Position numbers and translations under genes: made by a program. Positions 3,539 through 20,441 of a stretch of 64,000 nt of DNA are shown piece after piece. The stretch is taken from contig PBKD01000007.1 of NCBI GenBank assembly GCA_002722055.1, positions 124,001 to 188,000 on the forward strand, in the 5' to 3' direction. Position 1 is the stretch's first letter, and each line of letters starts with the position of its first letter. The DNA is from Rhodospirillaceae bacterium (GTDB taxonomy: Bacteria; Pseudomonadota; Alphaproteobacteria; SHVP01). The notes beneath the pieces were generated by a model, which saw nothing but the letters and a program-made list of their open reading frames with translations, did no database searches and had not been told where the DNA came from.

Positions 3539-3564
3539 CATTTATCTTTTATCTTTTATCTTTT
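3539..3564 (-). repeat. AAAGATA heptamer repeats at the neuA/GT4 junction, with a 4-codon decoy ORF
   Basis: On the minus strand the heptamer AAAGATA occurs three times in a row from the last codons of neuA, then once more after a 4-base break. The unit AAAGATAAATG is present twice. The first ATG (3539-3541) opens a mini-ORF of four codons whose TGA overlaps the real GT4 ATG at 3528-3530. Seen directly; any regulatory role is inference. Confidence 0.7.
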
Positions 3565-4248
3565 ATTATAACCATAATGCTTCATTAGTGCCTCGGCAGT
3601 TAAAAGGTCTTCTATAGTATCAATATCAATAGATTCCCAGAATGCCATTTCATAAGTAAATATTTTGTTAGAATATAGTTTGCCAGACAAAATTGTCTTA
3701 GTTGAATTAATAAGAATTGCTGGACCATTACGAACAACTATTTGTTGTGAATTATTATCTTCAAAATTTTTTGCTTCTCCGTTACTATCAATTCTATATA
3801 ATTTATTTGAATAAAATTTAGAAGGAAGCTTAGATACACTAACAACTGTGCAATCTTTGTTCTGGTTGAATAGATTAAGAGAGTCATCTATATGATTTTC
3901 TTTTCTTAATGGTGATGTAGGTTGTAATAAAGTAATTGAATTTATTTTAATTTGCTTTTTAAGATAATAGTCTAAAGCATTTTTAATGACAGGTAACGTT
4001 TTGGTATCATCTTTTGCAAGTTCTTTTGGTCTTAAAAATGGTACTTCTAATCCAAGTTGCTGACCAGTTTTTGCGATCTTTTCATTATCCGTTGATAGCA
4101 TTACAATATCAAGTTTACTAAGCAATGCTGATTTTGCTGTCCAATAAATAAGGGGCATACCAGCGCAAGGATAAATATTTTTATTCTTGAGTCTCTTTGA
4201 TTCTCCTCTAGCTGTTATTATGCCTAAATTTATTCCTATATTATGCAT
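3556..4248 (-). CDS. neuA: Acylneuraminate (nonulosonate) cytidylyltransferase
   Basis: 230 residues, the normal length for a single-domain CMP-sialic acid synthetase. It activates a nonulosonic acid with CTP to give the CMP-sugar used by glycosyltransferases. Visible family motifs are ITARGESKRL near the N-terminus (nucleotide loop), LQPTSPLR at about 110, and RNGPAI and ESIDIDTIEDL near the C-terminus. The loop reads RGESK where the usual form is RGGSK. It lies 15 bases after neuC on the same strand, completing neuB-neuC-neuA. Whether the substrate is Neu5Ac, legionaminate or pseudaminate cannot be decided by eye. Confidence 0.87.
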   Translation of the reverse strand: MHNIGINLGIITARGESKRLKNKNIYPCAGMPLIYWTAKSALLSKLDIVMLSTDNEKIAKTGQQLGLEVPFLRPKELAKDDTKTLPVIKNALDYYLKKQIKINSITLLQPTSPLRKENHIDDSLNLFNQNKDCTVVSVSKLPSKFYSNKLYRIDSNGEAKNFEDNNSQQIVVRNGPAILINSTKTILSGKLYSNKIFTYEMAFWESIDIDTIEDLLTAEALMKHYGYNKR

Positions 4249-4263
4249 ATAAAATCTACTTTT

Positions 4264-5421
4264 TTAGTAAGTGATCCTTTTTTGGATAGATACTTTTTTT
4301 GAAGAGAGAATTTTAGCTATTTTTTCTCCACTAAATCCATCACCGTAAATTTTTTTTGATTGAAATGGCCCGTGGTCAATTTGAGACTTTATAGCTTTTA
4401 TAATATTATTTTCAGAGTAATCTATATCTAAAACATTTTCTCCTCTTTCTCTACCTGCTTGTCTTGTTCCAATGTTTACAGCAGGAGTTCCTATAAATGC
4501 TCCCTCACGTATACCGCTAGAAGAATTCCCTACTAAACACAAAGTCCTTTTCATTAGTTGTATATAAATTTCCATTGGAAGGTTTTTAAAAAAATGAATT
4601 TTTGCAGAGTCTCCTCTCTCCCTCCATGTTCTTATTCCTTTTGCTAAGTCTTCAGATCCTGCGTCAGCATTTGGCCATAAAACTATTGCTGGAAAACCTA
4701 TTTTTTTTACTGCATTAAGAGTATTAAGTATTTGCTCCTTTCCATGCCCATATTCTGTTGTAACTGGATGTTGAGAAACAAGTATAAACTCACTATCAAT
4801 ATCTATTTTTTCTCCTACGCCCTGATCAAATATTCTATTTGATATTTTTGTGTATGGTTCTGCTTCTGTTAAAATATCTTTAACTATATCAATTCTAGGG
4901 CATCCTACTAAATGAACATTTTCTTTTTCTTCACCCATCCTCACAATTCTATCATAGGCTTGTTTAGACGATGGAAAATGTATATGGGCAAATTTTGTAA
5001 TTGCATGCCGAATTGACTCATCAATAGTTCCGCTTACTTCCCCACCCATTGTATGAGCTAATGGAATATTCATGTATGCTGCAGATATAGCTGTGGCCAT
5101 GGTCTCAAATCTATCTCCAACTGTTAATACTATATCTGGTTCAAGATCTTCAAATAATGGTGGTATATTTAGTAAACCAACTCCTGTTGATTGAGCCATT
5201 GTGGTAGGGGACTCTCCTTCTATGAGCATATTTACTTTTCCATCTATATTAAAACCATCTTTCCTAATTAAATCAATAACCGAACCATAACGACTTAACA
5301 ATGCAGATGCTCCAACGATTAATTGTAATTGAAGGTTAGAATCTAGAGATATAGATTTTAATACTGATCTTATGCTAGAGTAATTTGCCCTAGAACCAAT
5401 AACAACACAAATTTTTTTCAT
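4264..5421 (-). CDS. neuC: UDP-N-acetylglucosamine 2-epimerase, hydrolysing (NeuC/LegG type)
   Basis: 385 residues, the usual length of the hydrolysing 2-epimerase. It converts a UDP-HexNAc to free ManNAc (NeuC) or the 2,4-diacetamido-trideoxy analogue (LegG). Family signatures are visible: TVGDRFETMA, AHTMGGEVSGTIDES followed by RHAITK and HIHFPSS, and GNSSSGIREG with a later NIGTRQAGRERG. The ATG overlaps the neuB stop by four bases, so neuB and neuC are translationally coupled. Its product would be condensed with PEP by the neighbouring synthase. NeuC versus LegG is left open. Confidence 0.9.
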   Translation of the reverse strand: MKKICVVIGSRANYSSIRSVLKSISLDSNLQLQLIVGASALLSRYGSVIDLIRKDGFNIDGKVNMLIEGESPTTMAQSTGVGLLNIPPLFEDLEPDIVLTVGDRFETMATAISAAYMNIPLAHTMGGEVSGTIDESIRHAITKFAHIHFPSSKQAYDRIVRMGEEKENVHLVGCPRIDIVKDILTEAEPYTKISNRIFDQGVGEKIDIDSEFILVSQHPVTTEYGHGKEQILNTLNAVKKIGFPAIVLWPNADAGSEDLAKGIRTWRERGDSAKIHFFKNLPMEIYIQLMKRTLCLVGNSSSGIREGAFIGTPAVNIGTRQAGRERGENVLDIDYSENNIIKAIKSQIDHGPFQSKKIYGDGFSGEKIAKILSSKKVSIQKRITY

Positions 5422-6410
5422 TCTAAATCATCCCAAGTCAATAATTGGTCTACTTGAATTTCTTTCTTTACTTTTTTATTAATTACACTTTTATATTTAT
5501 TAGCATTAATTCCAGTTCCAGGTTTTTTAAAATTTAAATCTTTTATTTCAAGAATTTTTCCTATTGGTAAATTTCTTGAGGCAACAATACTTTTTTCAAA
5601 TATTTCTTTCATTTCTTTATAATCAGATATATCATCTTTATCAATTTTAGAATTAATTATAATTGATGTCTCTCTAATCATTTCAACAAAAGATTTGAAT
5701 TTATCTACTTCCATAGCATTGGGTGCATCACTTCCATACATCATATTAGATAGAGTTAAATGTTTTTCAATTACCTCTGCTCCTTTTACAACGGCAGATA
5801 TTCCAGCAGCAAATCCAAGTGTATGATCTGAAAAACCTATTTTTGCAATGTGTGAGTATTTTGACTTCATTGATTCAATTACATTAAGACCTACCTTTTC
5901 TGGTGGGCATGGATAAATTGAACTACATTGCATTACAGTAAGATGCTGCGTGGACTTAAGAATACTTAAAGCTTGATCAATTTCATTAAAATTACTCATG
6001 CCAGTAGAAATAAAAACTTCTTTTTTTGTAGACATTATTTTTTCAATTAAAGGAAAATTTGTTACTTCACCAGATGCGATTTTATAAGCATCAATATTTA
6101 TTGATTCAAGCAACTCAACTGCTTTAATTGAAAATGGGGAAGATAGAAATGATAAGTTATTCTTGTTTGCTATTTCTTTCAATTTTGCCCATTGATATAC
6201 CGAAAAAGATGTTCTTTCAAAATATGAATATCTATCTTCATCGGAAAAATAAGATGGTGATGGGGCATTTCTCAAAGTTTCTTCATTAGCTATATGCGTC
6301 TGAAATTTTACAATATCAGCCCCTACTTCTGCAGCAGCTTCAATCAATTTACAAGCATTACCGAATGATCCATCGTGAACTGAACCAATTTCAGCTATTA
6401 TTTTAACCAT
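5418..6410 (-). CDS. neuB: N-acetylneuraminate/nonulosonate synthase (first copy)
   Basis: 330 residues. The N-terminal NeuB TIM barrel is followed by a C-terminal SAF (antifreeze-like) domain from about residue 265. It condenses a six-carbon N-acyl-mannosamine-type sugar with phosphoenolpyruvate to a nine-carbon acid. The two metal-ligand histidines sit in GFSDHTLG and VIEKHLTL. Where many relatives have NHNG near the N-terminus this protein reads VHDG, and the loop after the second His reads MYGSDA, unlike the second copy at 7253-8311. First gene of a neuB-neuC-neuA run with overlapping ends. The 154 bases upstream should contain its promoter. Confidence 0.9.
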   Translation of the reverse strand: MVKIIAEIGSVHDGSFGNACKLIEAAAEVGADIVKFQTHIANEETLRNAPSPSYFSDEDRYSYFERTSFSVYQWAKLKEIANKNNLSFLSSPFSIKAVELLESINIDAYKIASGEVTNFPLIEKIMSTKKEVFISTGMSNFNEIDQALSILKSTQHLTVMQCSSIYPCPPEKVGLNVIESMKSKYSHIAKIGFSDHTLGFAAGISAVVKGAEVIEKHLTLSNMMYGSDAPNAMEVDKFKSFVEMIRETSIIINSKIDKDDISDYKEMKEIFEKSIVASRNLPIGKILEIKDLNFKKPGTGINANKYKSVINKKVKKEIQVDQLLTWDDLE

Positions 6411-6564
6411 AGTCTACCAAACCCGATAATTATAAAGTTATATATTAATATATGTTTTCTTAATTATATACAAAATTTTAACAAAATATTTTTTCTATTT
6501 TAAATTTTCTATGCAAGGTATCTTAAAAAATTATATAAAGAATAAAAAAAAGAATTTGTGATGT

Positions 6565-7245
6565 TTAATCAAAATATTTTGAGGGCCTATCTATGTTCAT
6601 TAGGAGGTCTATTACGCTCATATTAGCCTCAAATCCCTTATAATTCTGGCTGTAAAAAGGATGTATAAAATTATGATATTCAATATTGATAGATTCATTT
6701 TCAAATTTTTTTTCATTTAAGTAATTTTTTCCATTAGGGCCAGATAAATATTTTGAAGTATCAAAGTGCTTGCAAATTTCTAATATAAGGTCAGATTTAT
6801 TTTCTTTGAAAGGTTTTAGTTCCGAAGTTCTTATAATTTTAGTATCTATTTCTAAGATGTCAAAAAAGCAAATAGTTGTTTCATAACTTAAATCAGCTAG
6901 ATTTAACCATTTTTTTTTAAGAATATTTTCTATTAAAGGGAATATTTTTTCAAAGTTTTTAGCTTTTGTGTAGACCTGTTTAATTGATTTTAAATGCTTA
7001 ATATTCCAGTTTTGACTGTAGTCTATTTCAATCTGATTAATATTTTTTTCGTAAAGTATTTTCTTTGTAATAACTGGAACAGTAATCCAGGACCAGCCAA
7101 TATTTGTACGAATTTTGTTTCTATTTTGAAAACTATTTTTTTGATATTGTACTGTGTCTAAGATTATGAAAATGTCACTTTTTGCTATACGATCGTAATA
7201 TCCTAGCCAAGGAAAATATGCAGGTTGATGAATACTTAAAATCAT
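6565..7245 (-). CDS. WbqC family protein
   Basis: 226 residues, soluble. The N-terminus (ILSIHQPAYFPWLGYYDRI) is the diagnostic start of the WbqC family, and the downstream NSFQNRNKI and YLSGPNGKNYL pieces also match it. The family occurs in O-antigen, capsule and nonulosonate gene clusters. Its biochemical role is not established to my knowledge; proposals include transfer of an acyl or amino-acid group to a sugar. It lies 7 bases after the second synthase and is surely cotranscribed with it, which ties it to nonulosonate modification in this organism. Confidence 0.85.
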   Translation of the reverse strand: MILSIHQPAYFPWLGYYDRIAKSDIFIILDTVQYQKNSFQNRNKIRTNIGWSWITVPVITKKILYEKNINQIEIDYSQNWNIKHLKSIKQVYTKAKNFEKIFPLIENILKKKWLNLADLSYETTICFFDILEIDTKIIRTSELKPFKENKSDLILEICKHFDTSKYLSGPNGKNYLNEKKFENESINIEYHNFIHPFYSQNYKGFEANMSVIDLLMNIDRPSKYFD

Positions 7246-7252
7246 TTTTTTA

Positions 7253-8311
7253 TCAGGAAAAAAGTAAATCAGATAATTCTATTCCAGTATTTTCAGATAT
7301 ATTATGTTTAACCTTTTGGCCAACCATTAAATCCCAGTTTTCTAAAAAGCTTCCTGAATCAGATCTTTTAAATTTTACAGTTTCTTCAGATAGCAGTTCC
7401 CCAGGCTTAATATCTCTAGCAGCAACAATTCTTCTGCGCATTATTTTTTTAACTTCTAATTCTTTTTCAGACGGGTTAATTTTACCGTTACCTATGGCTT
7501 TTTCTGCAAATCTAATTCCATCAACTAGCTCTTTCATTTCGCTAGTATCAAGCGAGAACCAATGGTCTGGACCAGGAAGGTTATGATCGAGTGTAAAATG
7601 TTTTTCAATTACTTTTGCTCCTAATGAAACTGATATTATTGAAGCTAATGGGCCAATAGAATGATCTGAAAAGCCCCAAATGATTTCAGGGTATAGTTTC
7701 TTTAGAGTGATTATTTGGCTTATATTTAATAGTGAAGGTTCTGTGGGATAAAGAGAAACACAATGAAGAACAATTAATTTAGATGTATATTTACTTACTG
7801 TATTTATAATCCTATCAACTTCACTAACAGTTGCCATTCCTTTAGATAGAATTATAGGCAGACCACTTTTAGCATATTCAATTATATTTGGGAGATTATC
7901 AAAATCATCAGAACCTACTTTAATTCCTTTTAGTCCTAAATCTAACATCATATTTAAATTAGGTTTGTCTTGGACAGTAGTTAAGAAAAGTATACCAGTC
8001 TCATCGCAATATTCCATTAACTCAATCCATTGACTTCGTGAGAATTCAAGGTTTTTGAACATTTCAAATTCACTAACTGTAACTTCTTTCCCTTGAGATT
8101 GAAAAGTAAATTTCTTAGTTTTATCAGCACAAAATTCCTCTGCTGTATAAGTTTGGAATTTAATACAATCACAGCCTAATTCATAAGCTTTCTTAACCAT
8201 TTTTTTGGCTAAAGATAGATCGCCATTATGGTTACTTCCAGCTTCAGCAATTATAAAAGTTGGTGAATTTTCGCTAATAATATGTTTGCCAATTTTGATC
8301 ATACTAGTCAT
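7253..8311 (-). CDS. neuB: Nonulosonate synthase, NeuB/LegI type (second copy, with SAF domain)
   Basis: 352 residues, NeuB barrel plus C-terminal SAF domain. The N-terminal AEAGSNHNGD is the canonical form and the metal histidines lie in GFSDHSIG and VIEKHFTL. The loop after the second His reads LPGPDHWFSLD, which looks more like Neu/Leg synthases than pseudaminate synthases, where the equivalent is usually a PDS-AFS type. Two in-frame ATGs, at 8311 and 8302, are possible starts. It is divergent from pseB across 159-171 bases. With the copy at 5418 this window encodes two different synthases but only one cytidylyltransferase. Confidence 0.88.
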   Translation of the reverse strand: MTSMIKIGKHIISENSPTFIIAEAGSNHNGDLSLAKKMVKKAYELGCDCIKFQTYTAEEFCADKTKKFTFQSQGKEVTVSEFEMFKNLEFSRSQWIELMEYCDETGILFLTTVQDKPNLNMMLDLGLKGIKVGSDDFDNLPNIIEYAKSGLPIILSKGMATVSEVDRIINTVSKYTSKLIVLHCVSLYPTEPSLLNISQIITLKKLYPEIIWGFSDHSIGPLASIISVSLGAKVIEKHFTLDHNLPGPDHWFSLDTSEMKELVDGIRFAEKAIGNGKINPSEKELEVKKIMRRRIVAARDIKPGELLSEETVKFKRSDSGSFLENWDLMVGQKVKHNISENTGIELSDLLFS

Positions 8312-8367
8312 ACTCTTAACATCTTAAACTCTAAAATCAATATTTGGGAGTGTTTATTATATATTAT

Positions 8368-8397
8368 AGTCCTCAAATTAAGGACTTTTAGGTCCTT
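8368..8397. promoter_or_regulatory. Overlapping inverted repeats between divergent synthase and pseB genes
   Basis: AGTCCT (8368-8373) pairs with AGGACT (8381-8386) across a 7-base loop. The same middle segment, AAGGAC (8380-8385), can instead pair with GTCCTT (8392-8397). The two hairpins exclude each other. Equally, the three segments could be alternating operator half-sites between two divergent operons. Seen directly; the regulatory role is inference. Confidence 0.4.
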
Positions 8398-8482
8398 GTA
8401 GGTAAAAAAAGCAGAAATTAGACTTTAAATCAGTATTCTGTCAGTATAATAAGCTATAAATTAATTTTTCTTGAGTATTTAT

Positions 8483-9508
8483 ATGATGAAAAATAAAGAA
8501 TTCAAAATTTCAGATATAGATTTAAATGGTGCTTCAATACTTATAACAGGCGCAACAGGTTCTTTTGGACAACACTGTTTATACTATCTTAGTAAAAATT
8601 TCAAATTGGGAAGAATAGTGATTTTTTCAAGAGATGAGCTTAAACAATCCGAGATGCAATTAAATTTAGATAAAGAAACAAGTAATATTACTAGGTTTTT
8701 TATAGGTGATGTAAGAGATAGAAATAGACTTGAAATGGCAATGCAAGGGATAGATATAGTAATTCATGCCGCCGCATTAAAACAAGTAATTACAGCAGAA
8801 TACAATCCTATTGAGTGCATTCATACAAACATATTAGGAGCTGAGAATATTGTTCATGCCGCGTTTGCTAATAAAGTTTCTAAAGTAATAGCGCTCTCAA
8901 CAGATAAAGCGGCTAGTCCTGTAAACTTATACGGGGCAAGTAAGTTAGCTGCTGATAAGGTTTTTGTTGCGGCAAATCATTTGGGTGGAGAGGGTGGTAC
9001 AAAATTTTCGGTTGTTAGATATGGAAATGTGATTGGTTCAAGAGGAAGCGTTATCCCACTTTTTAAAAAAATGATTAACGAAGGTTCTGAATATCTTCCA
9101 ATTACTGATAATAGAATGACTCGTTTTTGGATAACTTTAAATCAAGGTGTTAAGTTTGTCTTATCTTGTTTAGCTATAATGAGAGGTGGTGAGATATTTA
9201 TTCCTAAAATACCTAGTATGCATGTAGCAGAAATTGCTAAAATCCTAGCCCCAGATTTGAAGCATAAAATTACAGGTATAAGGCCTGGCGAAAAGTTGCA
9301 CGAAATGATGATTACCTCAGAGGACTCAAGGACAACCTTAGATTTGGGTGATAGATTTGTTATTGAACCATCAGTTTCTTTATGGGGCAGGAAGAGTTTT
9401 ATTGATGATGGTGCGGTTCCAGTAGAAGAGGGTTTTTCTTATTCTAGTGATACAAATGAATCATGGTTAGATAAAGATATGTTTTTATCTATGTTAGATG
9501 ATATGTAG
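8483..9508 (+). CDS. pseB: UDP-N-acetylglucosamine 4,6-dehydratase (inverting), PseB
   Basis: About 341 residues, an extended SDR. The first enzyme of pseudaminate-type pathways, it dehydrates UDP-GlcNAc and inverts C5 to give the 4-keto-6-deoxy-L-arabino sugar. The NAD loop is TGATGSFG. The catalytic region has STDKA followed by YGASK with the active-site Lys, and RYGNVIGSRGSV is typical of PseB/FlaA1-type dehydratases. The frame is open from a TTG at 8471, but two ATGs at 8483 and 8486 are better starts. First gene of a plus-strand run with an RmlD-like reductase, a PIG-L deacetylase and pseG. No pseC aminotransferase follows. Confidence 0.9.
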   Translation: MMKNKEFKISDIDLNGASILITGATGSFGQHCLYYLSKNFKLGRIVIFSRDELKQSEMQLNLDKETSNITRFFIGDVRDRNRLEMAMQGIDIVIHAAALKQVITAEYNPIECIHTNILGAENIVHAAFANKVSKVIALSTDKAASPVNLYGASKLAADKVFVAANHLGGEGGTKFSVVRYGNVIGSRGSVIPLFKKMINEGSEYLPITDNRMTRFWITLNQGVKFVLSCLAIMRGGEIFIPKIPSMHVAEIAKILAPDLKHKITGIRPGEKLHEMMITSEDSRTTLDLGDRFVIEPSVSLWGRKSFIDDGAVPVEEGFSYSSDTNESWLDKDMFLSMLDDM

Positions 9509-9517
9509 GAGAAAAAG

Positions 9518-10393
9518 TTGACTTTAAGCACTCTGCTTACGGGTTCTTCAGGCTTGTTAGGTTATTATATATCCAAAGAGCTATATAATATGAACTATTC
9601 AGTATCAAATTTATGTTTTTTAAATAAAAAAAGTCCAGACTTTATTTCAATTGATCTAAGAGATAAAACAAAAACATTTGAATTGTTAAATAGTCTTAAC
9701 CCATCTTTAATAATTCATACTGCTGCATTAGTAAATGTAGATGTTTGTCAAAATGACATGCAATCTGCATATTTATCAAATGTAAAGGTAACTAGAAATT
9801 TAGTTGATTGGGTTAATCAAAAAGAAAAAAAAGTAAAATTGATATATTTCTCATCTGATCAAGTTTATAGTGGAGACGGGCCGCATAATGAAATTCAAGT
9901 GAACCCTCTAAATTTTTATGGAATGACAAAATTATGGAGTGAGGATATTGTCAGCACATGCCGTGAATCCCTAATATTAAGGATTAACTTTGTTGGTCTA
10001 GGTAACAGTTATCATAAGGGGTTTGCAAGATGGATATTAAAATCTTTAAATGAAGAGAAAGAGTTTTATGGGTTTGAAGATATAAAATTTAACCCATTGC
10101 ATGGATCTGTTTTAGCAAAAGTTTTAATTGATTCTCTGAAAGAAAATCTATCAGGGGTATTTAATATTGGTTCTGTGGGAGGGATATCTAAGGCTGATTT
10201 TATAATTGAGCTTGCAAAAGAACTTAATTTAAGCTCTGCTTTCATAAGAAAGATCAGTTATAAATCAATCAATAGTCTAACGCCACGTCCTTATGATATG
10301 AGGATGAATATAGATAATATAACTAATATGCTTAATTTCAAATTTCCAAATGTTGAGCAATCAATTAATTTGATAGCTAAAGAAATCGAGTAA
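9518..10393 (+). CDS. RmlD-like NAD(P)-dependent sugar nucleotide reductase (SDR)
   Basis: 291 residues. An N-terminal Rossmann loop (LTGSSGLLG) is followed by HTAALVNVDVC, FSSDQVYSG and YGMTK, which together match the RmlD (dTDP-4-dehydrorhamnose reductase) family. It starts at a TTG preceded at good spacing by AGGAG in the gap after pseB. It would reduce a 4-keto nucleotide sugar to the alcohol. In this position the natural substrate is the 4-keto product of PseB, which in standard pseudaminate synthesis is transaminated instead. The family call is firm; the substrate is inference. Confidence 0.82.
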   Translation: MTLSTLLTGSSGLLGYYISKELYNMNYSVSNLCFLNKKSPDFISIDLRDKTKTFELLNSLNPSLIIHTAALVNVDVCQNDMQSAYLSNVKVTRNLVDWVNQKEKKVKLIYFSSDQVYSGDGPHNEIQVNPLNFYGMTKLWSEDIVSTCRESLILRINFVGLGNSYHKGFARWILKSLNEEKEFYGFEDIKFNPLHGSVLAKVLIDSLKENLSGVFNIGSVGGISKADFIIELAKELNLSSAFIRKISYKSINSLTPRPYDMRMNIDNITNMLNFKFPNVEQSINLIAKEIE

Positions 10394-10426
10394 ATATAAT
10401 TTTTTATTTTAATAAGAAAGAAAGAA

Positions 10427-11125
10427 ATGAAAAGAATTTTAATTATAGCCTCCCATCCTGATGATGAAGTACTTGGTTGTGGAGGTGTAATAGCTCTGGC
10501 TTCACAAAAGGGCTACTCTGTTCGTGTGATTTTCTTAGCAGAAGGTGTGAGTGCAAGGTATAATGAAGAAGATTTTAAAGATAATAAGATCATTAAAGAG
10601 ATAGAGAATCGAAATAAAAATGCATATAAGGCTTTAGGTTATCTTGGGGTTTCTGAAAAAGAAATTTTTACCAGCAATAGATATTGTTGTCGTTTAGACA
10701 CATTGCCTCAAATTGAATTAATAAAGGATATAGAAAGTCATCTTGAAGATTTTAGGCCAAGTATGGTTTTCACTCATTCTGGTGATGATGTTAACATTGA
10801 TCATAGAGTAGCTTTTATGTCAAGTTTAGCAGCTCTCCGACCTATCAAAAAATCAAATGTTTCTGACTTTTTAACGTTTGAGGTTTTATCAAGTTCAGAG
10901 TGGAATACATTAAGACCTTTTAAGCCAAACTATTTTGTTGATATAACAAAAGTACTTGAATTAAAAATAGAGGCCCTTAAACTTTATGATAAAGAAGTCA
11001 AAGATTACCCTCATTCCAGATCTACTGAGATGTTAACTGCATTGGCAAGGTATAGAGGATCTCAGTCTTATTTTAAAGCTGCAGAGGCATTTTGTATTGT
11101 TCGTAAAATAGAGAATTCATTATAA
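10427..11125 (+). CDS. PIG-L/LmbE family N-acetyl-sugar deacetylase
   Basis: 232 residues. The zinc motif SHPDDE near the N-terminus and HSGDDVNIDHR at about residue 120 are the hallmark of the PIG-L (GlcNAc-PI de-N-acetylase) fold. Members remove acetyl groups from N-acetylated sugars or related amides. Its position between an RmlD-like reductase and pseG, with pseG starting one base after its stop (TAAAATG), suggests that it acts on the same nucleotide-sugar or nonulosonate intermediate. That would allow replacement of an acetyl by another N-substituent. The substrate is not visible in the sequence. Confidence 0.85.
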   Translation: MKRILIIASHPDDEVLGCGGVIALASQKGYSVRVIFLAEGVSARYNEEDFKDNKIIKEIENRNKNAYKALGYLGVSEKEIFTSNRYCCRLDTLPQIELIKDIESHLEDFRPSMVFTHSGDDVNIDHRVAFMSSLAALRPIKKSNVSDFLTFEVLSSSEWNTLRPFKPNYFVDITKVLELKIEALKLYDKEVKDYPHSRSTEMLTALARYRGSQSYFKAAEAFCIVRKIENSL

Positions 11126-11126
11126 A

Positions 11127-12125
11127 ATGATTTTATTTAGGTGTGATGCAGGTCCAGAAGTAGGTCTTGGCCATTTAATCAGATCCAGTGTATTGGGGGT
11201 TGAACTCTCTAAAATTACTAATAAAAAAATAACATTTGTAATTAATTCGTCTGAAAAAATAATCTCAAAGTATTTAGATAGAAATTATTTCAATATTATT
11301 CAATCTTATACCAAAATTGGAACAGATGATGATTTTAAATTTTTTAAAAACTATATGCAAGATGACTGCTTATTAATTGTAGATAGCAGATTTGTAAGGC
11401 AAAAAGATATTAATTATTGGTCTAGCTATTCTTATCTAATTGGAATAAATGATGGTATTAATAAATTAAGTTGGCCAATTATCCTAGACTATAACTTAGA
11501 TGCTAAGAAAAGAAACTCTTATGATTTAATAGGACCAAAATATAATCTAATTAATTCTAATTTTTTTTATGAGATAGAAAAAAATCAAGGCCTTCCTAGG
11601 GTATTGATAACTATGGGAGGAGAAGATCCAGAAAACTTAACTAGCTGGATTATAAAAAATGGTGCAAAAGCATTAGAGAAGTTTGATGTAAGGGTGATAA
11701 TAGGTGCGGCGCATCCTGATAGTCAAACGGTAAAATCAGATATATCAAAATATCTACCAAAAGCAGATATTATTGATAGCCCTCCCAATTTAGTTGATCA
11801 TGCAATTTGGTCTAATTTTGCAATTACAGCAGGAGGTATGTCAGCTTATGAGTTGGCTGCATCAGGAAATACTCTTATAGGAATAGCTTTAGAAAAACAT
11901 CAGGTTCCTCTTCTTAAAAGTATGGATGAGATAGGTGCTTTGGACTATTTAGGCGAATACAGGGATATTACTGAAGCAAAATTAATAACTTGCTTGGGAA
12001 AATTATTTGATGATTCTGTAAAAGCTGATAAATTGAGGAATTCAGCAAAAAAAATTTTTCCTAGCTCAGGTTCTCACTTGGCAGCAGCTAGAATTCTTGA
12101 TCTTTGGAGGCATAAATTAGTATAG
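11127..12125 (+). CDS. pseG: UDP-2,4-diacetamido-2,4,6-trideoxy-altropyranose hydrolase-like, PseG
   Basis: 332 residues, GT-B-like hydrolase fold. The N-terminal RCDAGPEVGLGHLIR holds the G-x-G-H-x-x-R signature of PseG with its catalytic His. AITAGGMSAYELAASG near residue 240 matches the C-terminal UDP-binding segment. In known pathways it removes UDP from the diacetamido-trideoxy sugar before the synthase step. Here the genes normally supplying that sugar (pseC, pseH) are absent from the window, so its true substrate may differ. Coupled to the preceding deacetylase. Confidence 0.85.
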   Translation: MILFRCDAGPEVGLGHLIRSSVLGVELSKITNKKITFVINSSEKIISKYLDRNYFNIIQSYTKIGTDDDFKFFKNYMQDDCLLIVDSRFVRQKDINYWSSYSYLIGINDGINKLSWPIILDYNLDAKKRNSYDLIGPKYNLINSNFFYEIEKNQGLPRVLITMGGEDPENLTSWIIKNGAKALEKFDVRVIIGAAHPDSQTVKSDISKYLPKADIIDSPPNLVDHAIWSNFAITAGGMSAYELAASGNTLIGIALEKHQVPLLKSMDEIGALDYLGEYRDITEAKLITCLGKLFDDSVKADKLRNSAKKIFPSSGSHLAAARILDLWRHKLV

Positions 12126-13972: not shown

Positions 13973-14962
13973 ATGAAAGCAGTTGTAACCGGAGGGGCCG
14001 GTTTTATTGGAAGTCACTTAGTAGAAAGATTAATTTCTGATGGTTTTGACGTCGTTGTCATAGATAACCTTTCAACAGGTCACGCGGAAAACATAGAAAC
14101 ATTTAAGTCTAGAATAACTTTTGAGAATGCGGATATTTCTGAAGGAGGTTCTTGGATTGATCATTTTAAGGGTGCAAATTATGTCTTTCATTTAGCTGCT
14201 TTGGCAGATATTGTGCCTTCAATTCAGAATCCAAGAAAATATTTCAAGTCTAATGTGAATGGTACATTCAATGTGCTAGAAGCTATTAGGGGTGTTAATG
14301 TAAATAAATTTGTGTATTCAGCATCATCATCTTGTTATGGTATTCCTTCAATCTATCCGACTCCAGAGAGTGAAGCAATTAACCCTATGTTTCCGTATGC
14401 ATTAACAAAGTATATTGGTGAAAATCTTGTCATGCATTGGTCAAAGGTATATGGCATTCCTTCCATTTCTCTCCGCTTCTTTAATGTTTATGGTCCAAGA
14501 TCAAGAACTTCAGGAACCTATGGTGCGATGTTTGGAGTTTTTCTTGCACAAAAATTAGCAAATAAACCATACACCATTGTAGGTGATGGTAGCCAAAAAA
14601 GAGATTTTACTTTTGTAACAGATGTAGTTGAAGCAATAGTATGCGCAGCAGGATCTAATATCGAATCCAAAATCTATAATGTTGGATCAGGATCAGCTGT
14701 TTCAGTAAATAGAGTAGTAGAATTACTTGAAGGTAATAAAGTATATATACCAAAGAGGCCTGGTGAGCCCGATACCACCTTCGCAGATATTGCTAGAATA
14801 AGTAATGATTTAGGTTGGAGGCCTAAAATACGTATAGAACTTGGTATTGATACTCTATTAAAGAATATAAACTATTGGAAAAAAGCTCCAGTTTGGGAGC
14901 CTGAATCTATAAAAGAAGCAACTAAAGACTGGTTTTTATACCTAGGTAAAAATAAAAAATGA
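13973..14962 (+). CDS. NAD-dependent nucleotide-sugar epimerase/dehydratase (extended SDR)
   Basis: 329 residues. The NAD loop TGGAGFIGSH is at the N-terminus, SASSSCYG holds the catalytic Ser, YALTK the Tyr/Lys pair, and RFFNVYGPRS the substrate-side motif. This is the GalE/WbpP-type epimerase pattern (UDP-Glc/GlcNAc 4-epimerase or a related 4,6-dehydratase). Its end overlaps the gmhA start by four bases, so it belongs to the LPS/heptose side rather than the pse operon. A GDP- or ADP-heptose substrate cannot be excluded. Confidence 0.8.
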   Translation: MKAVVTGGAGFIGSHLVERLISDGFDVVVIDNLSTGHAENIETFKSRITFENADISEGGSWIDHFKGANYVFHLAALADIVPSIQNPRKYFKSNVNGTFNVLEAIRGVNVNKFVYSASSSCYGIPSIYPTPESEAINPMFPYALTKYIGENLVMHWSKVYGIPSISLRFFNVYGPRSRTSGTYGAMFGVFLAQKLANKPYTIVGDGSQKRDFTFVTDVVEAIVCAAGSNIESKIYNVGSGSAVSVNRVVELLEGNKVYIPKRPGEPDTTFADIARISNDLGWRPKIRIELGIDTLLKNINYWKKAPVWEPESIKEATKDWFLYLGKNKK

Positions 14963-15540
14963 TTAACTTATCTGAATTTTTTTTTAGTGAACTTGATGAA
15001 CACCAAAAAATATTAAATTTAACTAGAGAAAAACTGGAAACAGAATTTATAAATTTAGTTAAATGTTGTAAATTGAGTATTGAAAATGGCGGTAAAATAA
15101 TTTTTTTTGGTAATGGTGGTAGTGCTGCTGACTCTCAGCACTTATCAACAGAATTAACAGTAAAATTCTCTAAAGTGAGAGATCCTATAGCGGCCATTGC
15201 TCTAACAACAGATACTTCAACCTTAACGGCTATTGGTAATGATTTTGGCTTTGAAAAAATTTTTTCTCGTCAAATAGAAGCAATAGGAAACCAAAATGAT
15301 ACTGCTATAGCTATTTCAACTTCTGGAAATAGTAATAATGTAATAGAAGGCGCCAAGTCAGCTAAATCAATTGGTATGACTGTTGTTGGTTTTACTGGAA
15401 TGTCTGGTGGTGATCTCTCAAAATTTTCTGATATAAATATTATGATTCCTTCAAATACCGTTTCTAGAATTCAAGAAATGCATATAACCATAGGACAAAT
15501 GTTATGTAATGCTTTAGAAATTAATTTAGGTTTAGTATGA
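14959..15540 (+). CDS. gmhA: Phosphoheptose isomerase, SIS domain
   Basis: 193 residues, the full length of GmhA. It isomerises sedoheptulose 7-phosphate to D-glycero-D-manno-heptose 7-phosphate, the first step to LPS-core or S-layer heptose. Visible are FFGNGGSAADSQHLS (phosphate loop and active site), AISTSGNSNNV (second phosphate loop) and the C-terminal QEMHITIGQMLCN helix with the catalytic His. The ATGA overlap at both ends couples it to the epimerase before it and waaA after it. The next phosphatase, gmhB, is 4.4 kb downstream; no hldE/hddA kinase is in the window. Confidence 0.92.
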   Translation: MINLSEFFFSELDEHQKILNLTREKLETEFINLVKCCKLSIENGGKIIFFGNGGSAADSQHLSTELTVKFSKVRDPIAAIALTTDTSTLTAIGNDFGFEKIFSRQIEAIGNQNDTAIAISTSGNSNNVIEGAKSAKSIGMTVVGFTGMSGGDLSKFSDINIMIPSNTVSRIQEMHITIGQMLCNALEINLGLV

Positions 15541-19928: not shown

Positions 19929-20441
19929 ATGGTTATGAAAATTGAAAAACCTGCTGTTTTTTTGGATAGAGATGGAGTGCTAAATGAAGATCTGGGCTAT
20001 GTCTTTGAGCCAAAGAAATTCCATTGGATTGACGGCGCTATAGAAACAATTAAATACATAAACAATATGAACTTTTTTGTTTTTGTGATTTCTAATCAGT
20101 CTGGATTAGCCCGGGGCTATTTTTATAAAAATGATATAGAGATGCTTCATAATTGGATCAATGAGGAACTTTTAAAAAATGATGCAAAGATTGACAAATT
20201 TTATTACTGTCCTCATCACCCTCAAGGGATTATTAAAGAATATAGTTTCACCTGTAGGTGCAGAAAACCTGAGCCTGGAATGATACTTAATGCATTCAAG
20301 GAGTGGCCAATCGTAAAATCAAAAAGTTTTATGATAGGTGATAAAGCTAGTGATATTAAAGCCGCTAATTCTGCTGGAATTGCAGGCCATCTTTTTAAAG
20401 GTGGTAATTTACTAAATTTTTTTAAAAATATTCTTATTTAG
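19929..20441 (+). CDS. gmhB: D-glycero-D-manno-heptose 1,7-bisphosphate 7-phosphatase (HAD family)
   Basis: 170 residues. HAD motif I is FLDRDGVLNED with the nucleophilic Asp and the acid/base Asp. SNQSG carries motif II, and CRKPEPGM with GDKASDIKAA carries motifs III and IV. Cys/His residues in YYCPHHP and FTCRCRKP form the zinc site typical of GmhB/HisB-N proteins. It removes the 7-phosphate in heptose activation and pairs with gmhA at 14959. Stands just after the tRNA gene and 2 bases before a GNAT gene. Confidence 0.9.
   Translation: MVMKIEKPAVFLDRDGVLNEDLGYVFEPKKFHWIDGAIETIKYINNMNFFVFVISNQSGLARGYFYKNDIEMLHNWINEELLKNDAKIDKFYYCPHHPQGIIKEYSFTCRCRKPEPGMILNAFKEWPIVKSKSFMIGDKASDIKAANSAGIAGHLFKGGNLLNFFKNILI

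What the first reader, a model, noticed from the sequence alone, without database searches (positions are those of the whole stretch)
5418..12125. Nonulosonate island with pseB and pseG but no pseC or pseH
PseB (8483-9508) and PseG (11127-12125) are both recognisable, yet the aminotransferase (PseC) and N-acetyltransferase (PseH) that act between them in known pseudaminate synthesis are not present anywhere in the window. The genes standing between pseB and pseG are an RmlD-like reductase and a PIG-L deacetylase. This may be a variant nine-carbon sugar pathway. The missing genes could lie left of base 1, which I cannot see.
Basis: partly seen in the sequence, partly recalled or inferred. Interest (0 to 1): 0.65.

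Follow-up and report, generated by a model that had tools for sequence, protein, structure and literature searches.

The report
Sialic-acid-like sugar pathway using a reductase
A bacterium carries a gene set for a nine-carbon acidic surface sugar in which the usual amine-adding enzyme seems to be replaced by a reductase, and the same replacement recurs in unrelated bacteria, so the genes probably make a rare kind of sialic-acid-like sugar with a known structure but no known recipe.

Summary
The window has PseB (8483-9508), an RmlD-like reductase (9518-10393), a PIG-L deacetylase (10427-11125), a divergent PseG (11127-12125) and a divergently transcribed NeuB-type synthase, NeuB2 (7253-8311), with no PseC or PseH. 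The 60 kb to the left hold no PseC either. A near-canonical pseB/pseC pair exists elsewhere in the genome (contig C8), so supply in trans is not excluded.

The run is a unit rather than a broken pse operon. A genome of another family in the same class (G474) has PseB, RmlD, PIG-L, PseG and NeuB2 together, without PseC. The reductase is not dTDP-rhamnose RmlD: it falls in a separate clade (100/100 support) that lies beside PseB and/or a NeuB in about 15 other genomes, including one of Fusobacteriaceae.

Best reading: PseB makes the L-4-keto sugar, the reductase turns C4 into an alcohol, PseG cuts off UDP and NeuB2 adds PEP. The product would be a 3,5,9-trideoxy nonulosonic acid with oxygen at C7. 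F. nucleatum 25586 O-antigen contains both the predicted intermediate type (L-6dAltNAc) and a trideoxy nonulosonate; I found no published biosynthesis for either. Chemistry, stereochemistry and the PIG-L step are inferred. NeuC, NeuB1 and NeuA look like a separate Neu5Ac-type set.

The parts
3556..4248 (-). NeuA/PseF-like CMP-sugar cytidylyltransferase
   Evidence: CTP_transf_3 72.7 bits; best NCBIfam PseF 118.6, below its cutoff of 205.7
4264..5421 (-). NeuC: hydrolysing UDP-GlcNAc 2-epimerase (Neu5Ac-type set)
   Evidence: TIGR03568 399 bits, above its cutoff of 235.9
5418..6410 (-). NeuB1: sialic-acid-type synthase, overlaps neuC by 4 bases
   Evidence: groups with N. meningitidis NeuB, 98/86 support; KIASGE motif
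6565..7245 (-). WbqC-family protein, role unknown; recurs next to nonulosonate genes
   Evidence: PF08889 248 bits; near NeuB2-type or pse genes in L187, L140, L097, L159
7253..8311 (-). NeuB2: nonulosonate synthase assigned to the PseB-RmlD-PIG-L-PseG pathway
   Evidence: PF03102; clade with the G007 (60%) and G474 (50%) synthases, 100/100
8483..9508 (+). [quoted passage not shown]
   Evidence: TIGR03589 494.3 bits, above cutoff; phmmer match to UDP-GlcNAc C6 dehydratase 2gn4 at 2e-110
9518..10393 (+). RmlD-like SDR, proposed UDP-4-keto-sugar C4 reductase in place of PseC
   Evidence: PF04321 121 bits; nonulosonate-linked clade split from dTDP-rhamnose RmlD at 100/100; Rossmann glycines, S/T, YxxxK conserved
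10427..11125 (+). PIG-L/LmbE-type N-deacetylase
   Evidence: PF02585 75 bits; HPDDE motif and downstream His read from sequence; 50% identical homologue in the same position in L188
11127..12125 (+). divergent PseG: UDP-sugar hydrolase
   Evidence: TIGR03590 104.6 bits, below cutoff 153.55; family profile to C. jejuni PseG E=1.1e-27; invariant His16 in the GxGH motif

Best explanation
The genes 7253-12125 encode a variant nonulosonic acid pathway in which the C4 ketone made by PseB is reduced to an alcohol by an RmlD-like enzyme instead of being aminated by PseC and acetylated by PseH. Proposed route: UDP-GlcNAc goes by PseB to UDP-2-acetamido-2,6-dideoxy-L-arabino-hexos-4-ulose; the reductase makes UDP-2-acetamido-2,6-dideoxy-L-altrose (or its C4 epimer); PseG removes UDP; NeuB2 condenses the free sugar with PEP to a 3,5,9-trideoxy nonulosonic acid with OH rather than NH-acyl at C7; a NeuA/SpsF-type enzyme adds CMP. 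PIG-L removes an N-acetyl group somewhere on the route, giving a free amine or one open to another acyl group. Shown: gene content, conservation as a set, distinct reductase clade, purifying selection. Inferred: every chemical step, the stereochemistry, and the place and target of PIG-L.
For: (1) Locus L188 (G474, another family) has on one strand PseB 56% - RmlD 30% - PIG-L 50% - SpsF::aldo/keto reductase - SDR - PseG 29% - NeuB2 48-50%, with no PseC. (2) Same-genus G001 keeps the whole island at 74-93% identity; dN/dS 0.06-0.19. (3) The reductase clade is separated at 100/100 from dTDP-rhamnose RmlDs, and the genome has its own RmlD over the cutoff at C6:83250. (4) Clade members lie with PseB and/or a NeuB in G004, G006, G008, G052, G355, G367, G561, G596, G774, G536, G564 and Fusobacteriaceae G169, whereas 83 of 102 PseB loci examined have a DegT aminotransferase within 4 kb. 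(5) No genome with the set has a PseC over cutoff; G004, G008, G052, G367 and G474 have none even at 1e-75. (6) PseG family profile matches C. jejuni PseG. (7) F. nucleatum 25586 O-antigen contains L-6dAltNAc and a 5-acetimidoyl-3,5,9-trideoxy nonulosonate (PMC13014188), the sugars this logic predicts; the G169 locus also has an N-acetyl-sugar amidotransferase above cutoff.
Against: The genome carries a near-canonical PseC with another PseB on contig C8. In G433 and G264 the RmlD-clade gene sits beside PseB and PseC, so it does not always replace PseC. NeuB2's nearest relatives beyond its own clade (L112, L140; 38-40%) lie in PseB-PseC-PseG loci. The recurrent RmlD-NeuB unit elsewhere uses a different synthase clade (MQCNTNYT), and no PseG was recognised near it. 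PseG is below its curated cutoff. F. nucleatum 25586's own genes were not seen; the G169 link is to another genome of the family, and its reductase reading frame is interrupted in that assembly.
Confidence: 0.6

Rival explanations
1. Branched use: PseB and the reductase make UDP-L-6dAltNAc that goes directly into a surface polysaccharide, while PseG and NeuB2 work on an aminated intermediate supplied by PseC from contig C8 (a split pseudaminate pathway).
For: PseC exists on C8. RmlD-clade genes coexist with PseC in G433 and G264. NeuB2's next relatives are in PseC loci. L-6dAltNAc occurs as a separate residue in F. nucleatum 25586 O-antigen (PMC13014188).
Against: G474 has the full set PseB-RmlD-PIG-L-PseG-NeuB2 with no PseC hit at 1e-75 in a genome 89% complete. 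C8 has its own PseB, PseG-like genes and NeuB. No PseH was found.
Confidence: 0.22
2. Ordinary pseudaminate pathway whose pseC and pseH have been moved elsewhere in the genome; the reductase and PIG-L are unrelated passengers.
For: A near-cutoff PseC on C8 (414 of 423.5 bits).
Against: Reductase and PIG-L keep their place between PseB and PseG in G001 and G474 and are under purifying selection. No PseH in the genome. NeuB2 lies outside the clade of PseI 8H2C and most pse-locus synthases.
Confidence: 0.08
3. The plus-strand genes make an L-FucNAc/L-PneNAc-type UDP-sugar (FnlA-FnlB-like) and have nothing to do with nonulosonates.
For: FnlA and PseB are related; FnlB is also an SDR reductase (established knowledge).
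Against: The dehydratase scores 494 bits for PseB against 227 of 730 for FnlA. No FnlC-type 2-epimerase adjoins. A PseG and a NeuB follow in L188. fnlABC-like clusters in Fusobacteriaceae look different.
Confidence: 0.05

Closest known systems
Pseudaminic acid pathway (PseB-PseC-PseH-PseG-PseI-PseF)
   Same: PseB first step, UDP-linked intermediates, PseG-type UDP removal, NeuB-family PEP condensation
   Different: no PseC or PseH; an RmlD-clade reductase and a PIG-L deacetylase stand in the run; the synthase lies outside the clade of PseI 8H2C and most pse-locus synthases
Trideoxy nonulosonate (fusaminic-type) and L-6dAltNAc of F. nucleatum ATCC 25586 O-antigen
   Same: structures match what PseB plus a C4 reductase (with PseG and NeuB) would give
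   Different: known as structures; I found no biosynthetic genes assigned in the held papers; genes of that strain not seen here; the C4 configuration may differ
B. subtilis sps legionaminate pathway (SpsM-C-D-G-E-F; PMC7439481)
   Same: UDP-linked route with a PseG-like SpsG, NeuB-like SpsE and SpsF
   Different: needs SpsC and SpsD (amination and acetylation steps) and a dehydratase without C5 inversion; its spsIJKL genes belong to dTDP-rhamnose synthesis
FnlABC/CapEFG L-FucNAc pathway
   Same: inverting dehydratase followed by an SDR 4-keto reductase on a UDP-amino sugar
   Different: adds a 2-epimerase, has no PseG or NeuB; other dehydratase and reductase families

Membership tests
Pseudaminic acid (Pse) pathway | PseB inverting dehydratase | tested here: met
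   TIGR03589 494.3 bits, above 407.75
Pseudaminic acid (Pse) pathway | PseC aminotransferase in the locus | tested here: not met
   none in the window or in the 60 kb to its left; nearest is C8:33088-34260 on another contig
Pseudaminic acid (Pse) pathway | PseH N-acetyltransferase | tested here: not met
   no genome match over cutoff; best 33.9 of 93.1 bits
Pseudaminic acid (Pse) pathway | PseG UDP-sugar hydrolase | tested here: inconclusive
   104.6 bits, below the 153.55 cutoff; homology to PseG 3HBM clear by profile, E=1.1e-27
Pseudaminic acid (Pse) pathway | PseI-type synthase | tested here: not met
   NeuB2 234 of 340 bits, lacks the Pse-type Phe (KVGSDD instead of KIASFE), and falls outside the clade of PseI 8H2C
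RmlD (dTDP-4-dehydrorhamnose reductase) | RmlD equivalog score and clade | tested here: not met
   116.6 of 224 bits; separate clade at 100/100; the genome's own RmlD is at C6:83250
Neu5Ac pathway (NeuC-NeuB-NeuA) | hydrolysing 2-epimerase plus Neu-type synthase plus CMP synthetase | tested here: met
   NeuC above cutoff; NeuB1 groups with N. meningitidis NeuB; NeuA only by PF02348; product not tested
PseB-RmlD-PIG-L-PseG-NeuB2 route proposed here | recurrence of the full set without PseC outside the genus | tested here: met
   L188 of G474, another family; one independent case only
Fusaminic-type trideoxy nonulosonate | product is a 3,5,9-trideoxy nonulosonic acid | not testable with these tools
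   needs enzymology or mass spectrometry/NMR

The most novel reading that the evidence does not exclude
A further route to nonulosonic acids, separate from the Neu, Leg and Pse routes: PseB plus an RmlD-clade C4 reductase feed NeuB-family synthases (two clades, NeuB2-like and a cross-phylum MQCNTNYT clade) to make C7-hydroxy 3,5,9-trideoxy nonulosonates. In this genus and in G474, PIG-L additionally frees the amine for unusual acyl groups.
Probability: 0.45. Interest if true: 0.72.

Novelty: new variant of a known kind. Interest (0 to 1): 0.6.

Why it matters
Trideoxy nonulosonates such as that of F. nucleatum are known as structures, and I found no genes assigned to them in the held papers. 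If the reductase replaces amination, a gene signature (PseB next to an RmlD-clade reductase and a NeuB, no PseC) would predict which bacteria make them, correct annotations that now read these loci as pseudaminate or rhamnose synthesis, and give enzymes for making rare sialic-acid analogues. The MQCNTNYT synthase clade, conserved from Pseudomonadota to Fusobacteriaceae, is a direct target for assay.

Tried and rejected
Window-edge artefact: rejected; 60 kb to the left hold no pseC or pseH. dTDP-rhamnose reductase: rejected by score, tree and a separate true RmlD. FnlABC: rejected by dehydratase scores. The genus-level search around F. gastrosuis held only 3 genomes, so the family was searched. 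Most family hits there are fnlABC-like; one true PseB locus was informative. Paper searches for PIG-L or LmbE with nonulosonates gave no link. Structure prediction was not used: relatives from the genome search are not on its list of admitted sequences, and a single-sequence model would not decide the substrate.

Full report
What is there. The window is G000:C7:124001-188000 of a 2.16 Mb, 15-contig genome that is 99% complete. Two gene groups diverge from the gap at 8312-8470. On the minus strand lie NeuB2 (7253-8311), WbqC (6565-7245), NeuB1 (5418-6410), NeuC (4264-5421) and NeuA (3556-4248). On the plus strand lie PseB (8483-9508), an RmlD-like reductase (9518-10393), PIG-L (10427-11125) and PseG (11127-12125), with gaps of a few to about 30 bases. 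PseB and NeuC are above their equivalog cutoffs; PseG, both NeuBs, NeuA and the reductase are below theirs. Pfam confirms the families except for PseG, which has no Pfam hit.

The missing genes. No PseC or PseH was found in this island. The 60 kb to the left hold two DegT enzymes, about 21-24 kb from the window edge, in a cluster that looks like another nucleotide-sugar route. The genome has four further full-length DegT enzymes on contigs C8 and C11. One (C8:33088-34260) scores 414 bits against 423.5 for PseC and stands next to a second PseB and PseG-like frames. No PseH match passes its cutoff anywhere.

The set is conserved. In a same-genus genome the island is kept gene for gene at 74-93% identity, with dN/dS between 0.06 and 0.19 for nine genes. 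Searching with NeuB2 found G474, of another family in the same class. There one strand reads PseB, RmlD-like, PIG-L, SpsF fused to an aldo/keto reductase, an SDR, PseG and a NeuB2-type synthase, with no aminotransferase in the run and no PseC match at 1e-75 in that 89%-complete genome. This is the strongest evidence that the five enzymes act together.

The reductase. In a tree with dTDP-rhamnose RmlDs of related genomes, the window protein and eleven others found beside nonulosonate genes form one group against all RmlDs with 100/100 support. One member, L052, is a truncated frame with a long branch. The genome's real RmlD is at C6:83250. The group keeps the nucleotide-binding glycines and the S/T, Y and K of an active SDR.

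How common it is. In a class-wide draw, 103 of 387 genomes have a PseB at 1e-110 or better. Of 102 PseB loci examined (96 from that draw plus six found earlier), 83 have a DegT aminotransferase within 4 kb and 19 do not; eight of those 19 have the reductase clade. The six earlier loci were chosen because they carry the reductase, so the unbiased share is two of 96. Two loci have both PseC and the reductase (G433, G264). A phylum-wide search gave seven more reductases; five are adjacent to a NeuB, and four of those five also have a PseB match within the fetched region.

Two synthase types. The NeuBs next to the reductase in eleven genomes, including Fusobacteriaceae G169, share the unusual motif MQCNTNYT and form a clade with 100/100 support. 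Window NeuB2 is not of that clade. It groups with G007 and G474, and beyond them with synthases from two PseB-PseC-PseG loci. NeuB1 groups with N. meningitidis NeuB, which together with NeuC suggests a separate Neu5Ac-type set. Published work ties residues near position 132 to substrate class, Gly for Neu and Leg and Phe for Pse (PMC7371886). NeuB2 has Asp there (KVGSDD) and NeuB1 has Gly. My residue numbering is offset by one from the paper's, so motifs are quoted rather than numbers.

Mechanism proposed. PseB is known to make the C5-inverted UDP-4-keto-6-deoxy-N-acetylhexosamine (established knowledge; PMC8987622). In known pathways PseC aminates C4. Here a reductase stands in its place; reduction would give UDP-6-deoxy-L-AltNAc or its C4 epimer. 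A profile of the PseG family matches C. jejuni PseG across nearly its whole length, so UDP removal is plausible, and a NeuB-family enzyme would add PEP. The product would carry OH at C7. PIG-L probably removes the N-acetyl group derived from C2 of the hexose, which becomes C5 of the nonulosonate. In G007 a formyltransferase, and in G474 an ATP-grasp protein, lie near the synthase, which would fit re-acylation, but no acyltransferase was identified in the window and the order of steps is open.

Link to known chemistry. F. [quoted passage not shown] By configurational reasoning of my own, the L-altro sugar extended by PEP gives this series, the C4 centre being set by the synthase. In Fusobacteriaceae genome G169 (unnamed, 3.30 Mb) PseB, SpsF, a reductase of this clade and an MQCNTNYT synthase lie together, with an N-acetyl-sugar amidotransferase above its cutoff 0.8 kb beyond the synthase, the right genes for an acetimidoyl trideoxy nonulosonate. 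That genome was not identified as strain 25586, and its reductase frame is interrupted in the assembly. I found no paper in the library that assigns genes to these sugars, or that links PIG-L/LmbE to nonulosonates; subscription journals are mostly not held.

Verdict. The variant-pathway reading is well supported by gene conservation but chemically untested. It is a new variant of nonulosonate synthesis, with a modest chance (about one in five) that the reductase feeds a separate UDP-sugar while PseC from contig C8 serves PseG and NeuB2.

Noticed in passing
G000 contigs C7, C8, C11 (window; L016-L019): Seven NeuB-family synthases in a 2.16 Mb genome: two in the window, three on C8 (19161, 27361, 51553) and two on C11 (22376, 26174), so probably several different nonulosonates are made.
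   Followed up: partly
L017 (G000:C8:34232-35216): The PseG-like gene between pseB and pseC on C8 is split into two overlapping frames (160 and 171 aa): a frameshift, an assembly error or a two-part form.
   Followed up: no
L029, L030, L031, L113, L161, L052, L202, L203, L206, L207, L208: A NeuB-family clade with motif MQCNTNYT, next to an RmlD-clade reductase, in Pseudomonadota and Fusobacteriaceae; no PseG was recognised nearby, so how UDP is removed there is unknown.
   Followed up: partly
window 6565-7245; L187, L140, L097, L159: WbqC-family protein of unknown function recurs within a few kb of NeuB genes; may modify nonulosonates.
   Followed up: no
L018 (G000:C8:51553-53347) and L101: A second PIG-L gene lies beside a NeuB on C8, and a 51% identical PIG-L lies near PseB-PseG-PseC in G250, so PIG-L deacetylases look like a recurrent accessory of nonulosonate loci.
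   Followed up: partly
L052 11474-12345: The reductase frame in Fusobacteriaceae G169 stops after 211 codons and continues in another frame: possible pseudogene, phase variation or sequencing error.
   Followed up: no
window 13973-15540 and 19929-20441: SDR followed by a SIS-domain protein like phosphoheptose isomerase, and a HAD phosphatase like GmhB further on: possible heptose-type sugar genes, read from sequence only.
   Followed up: no
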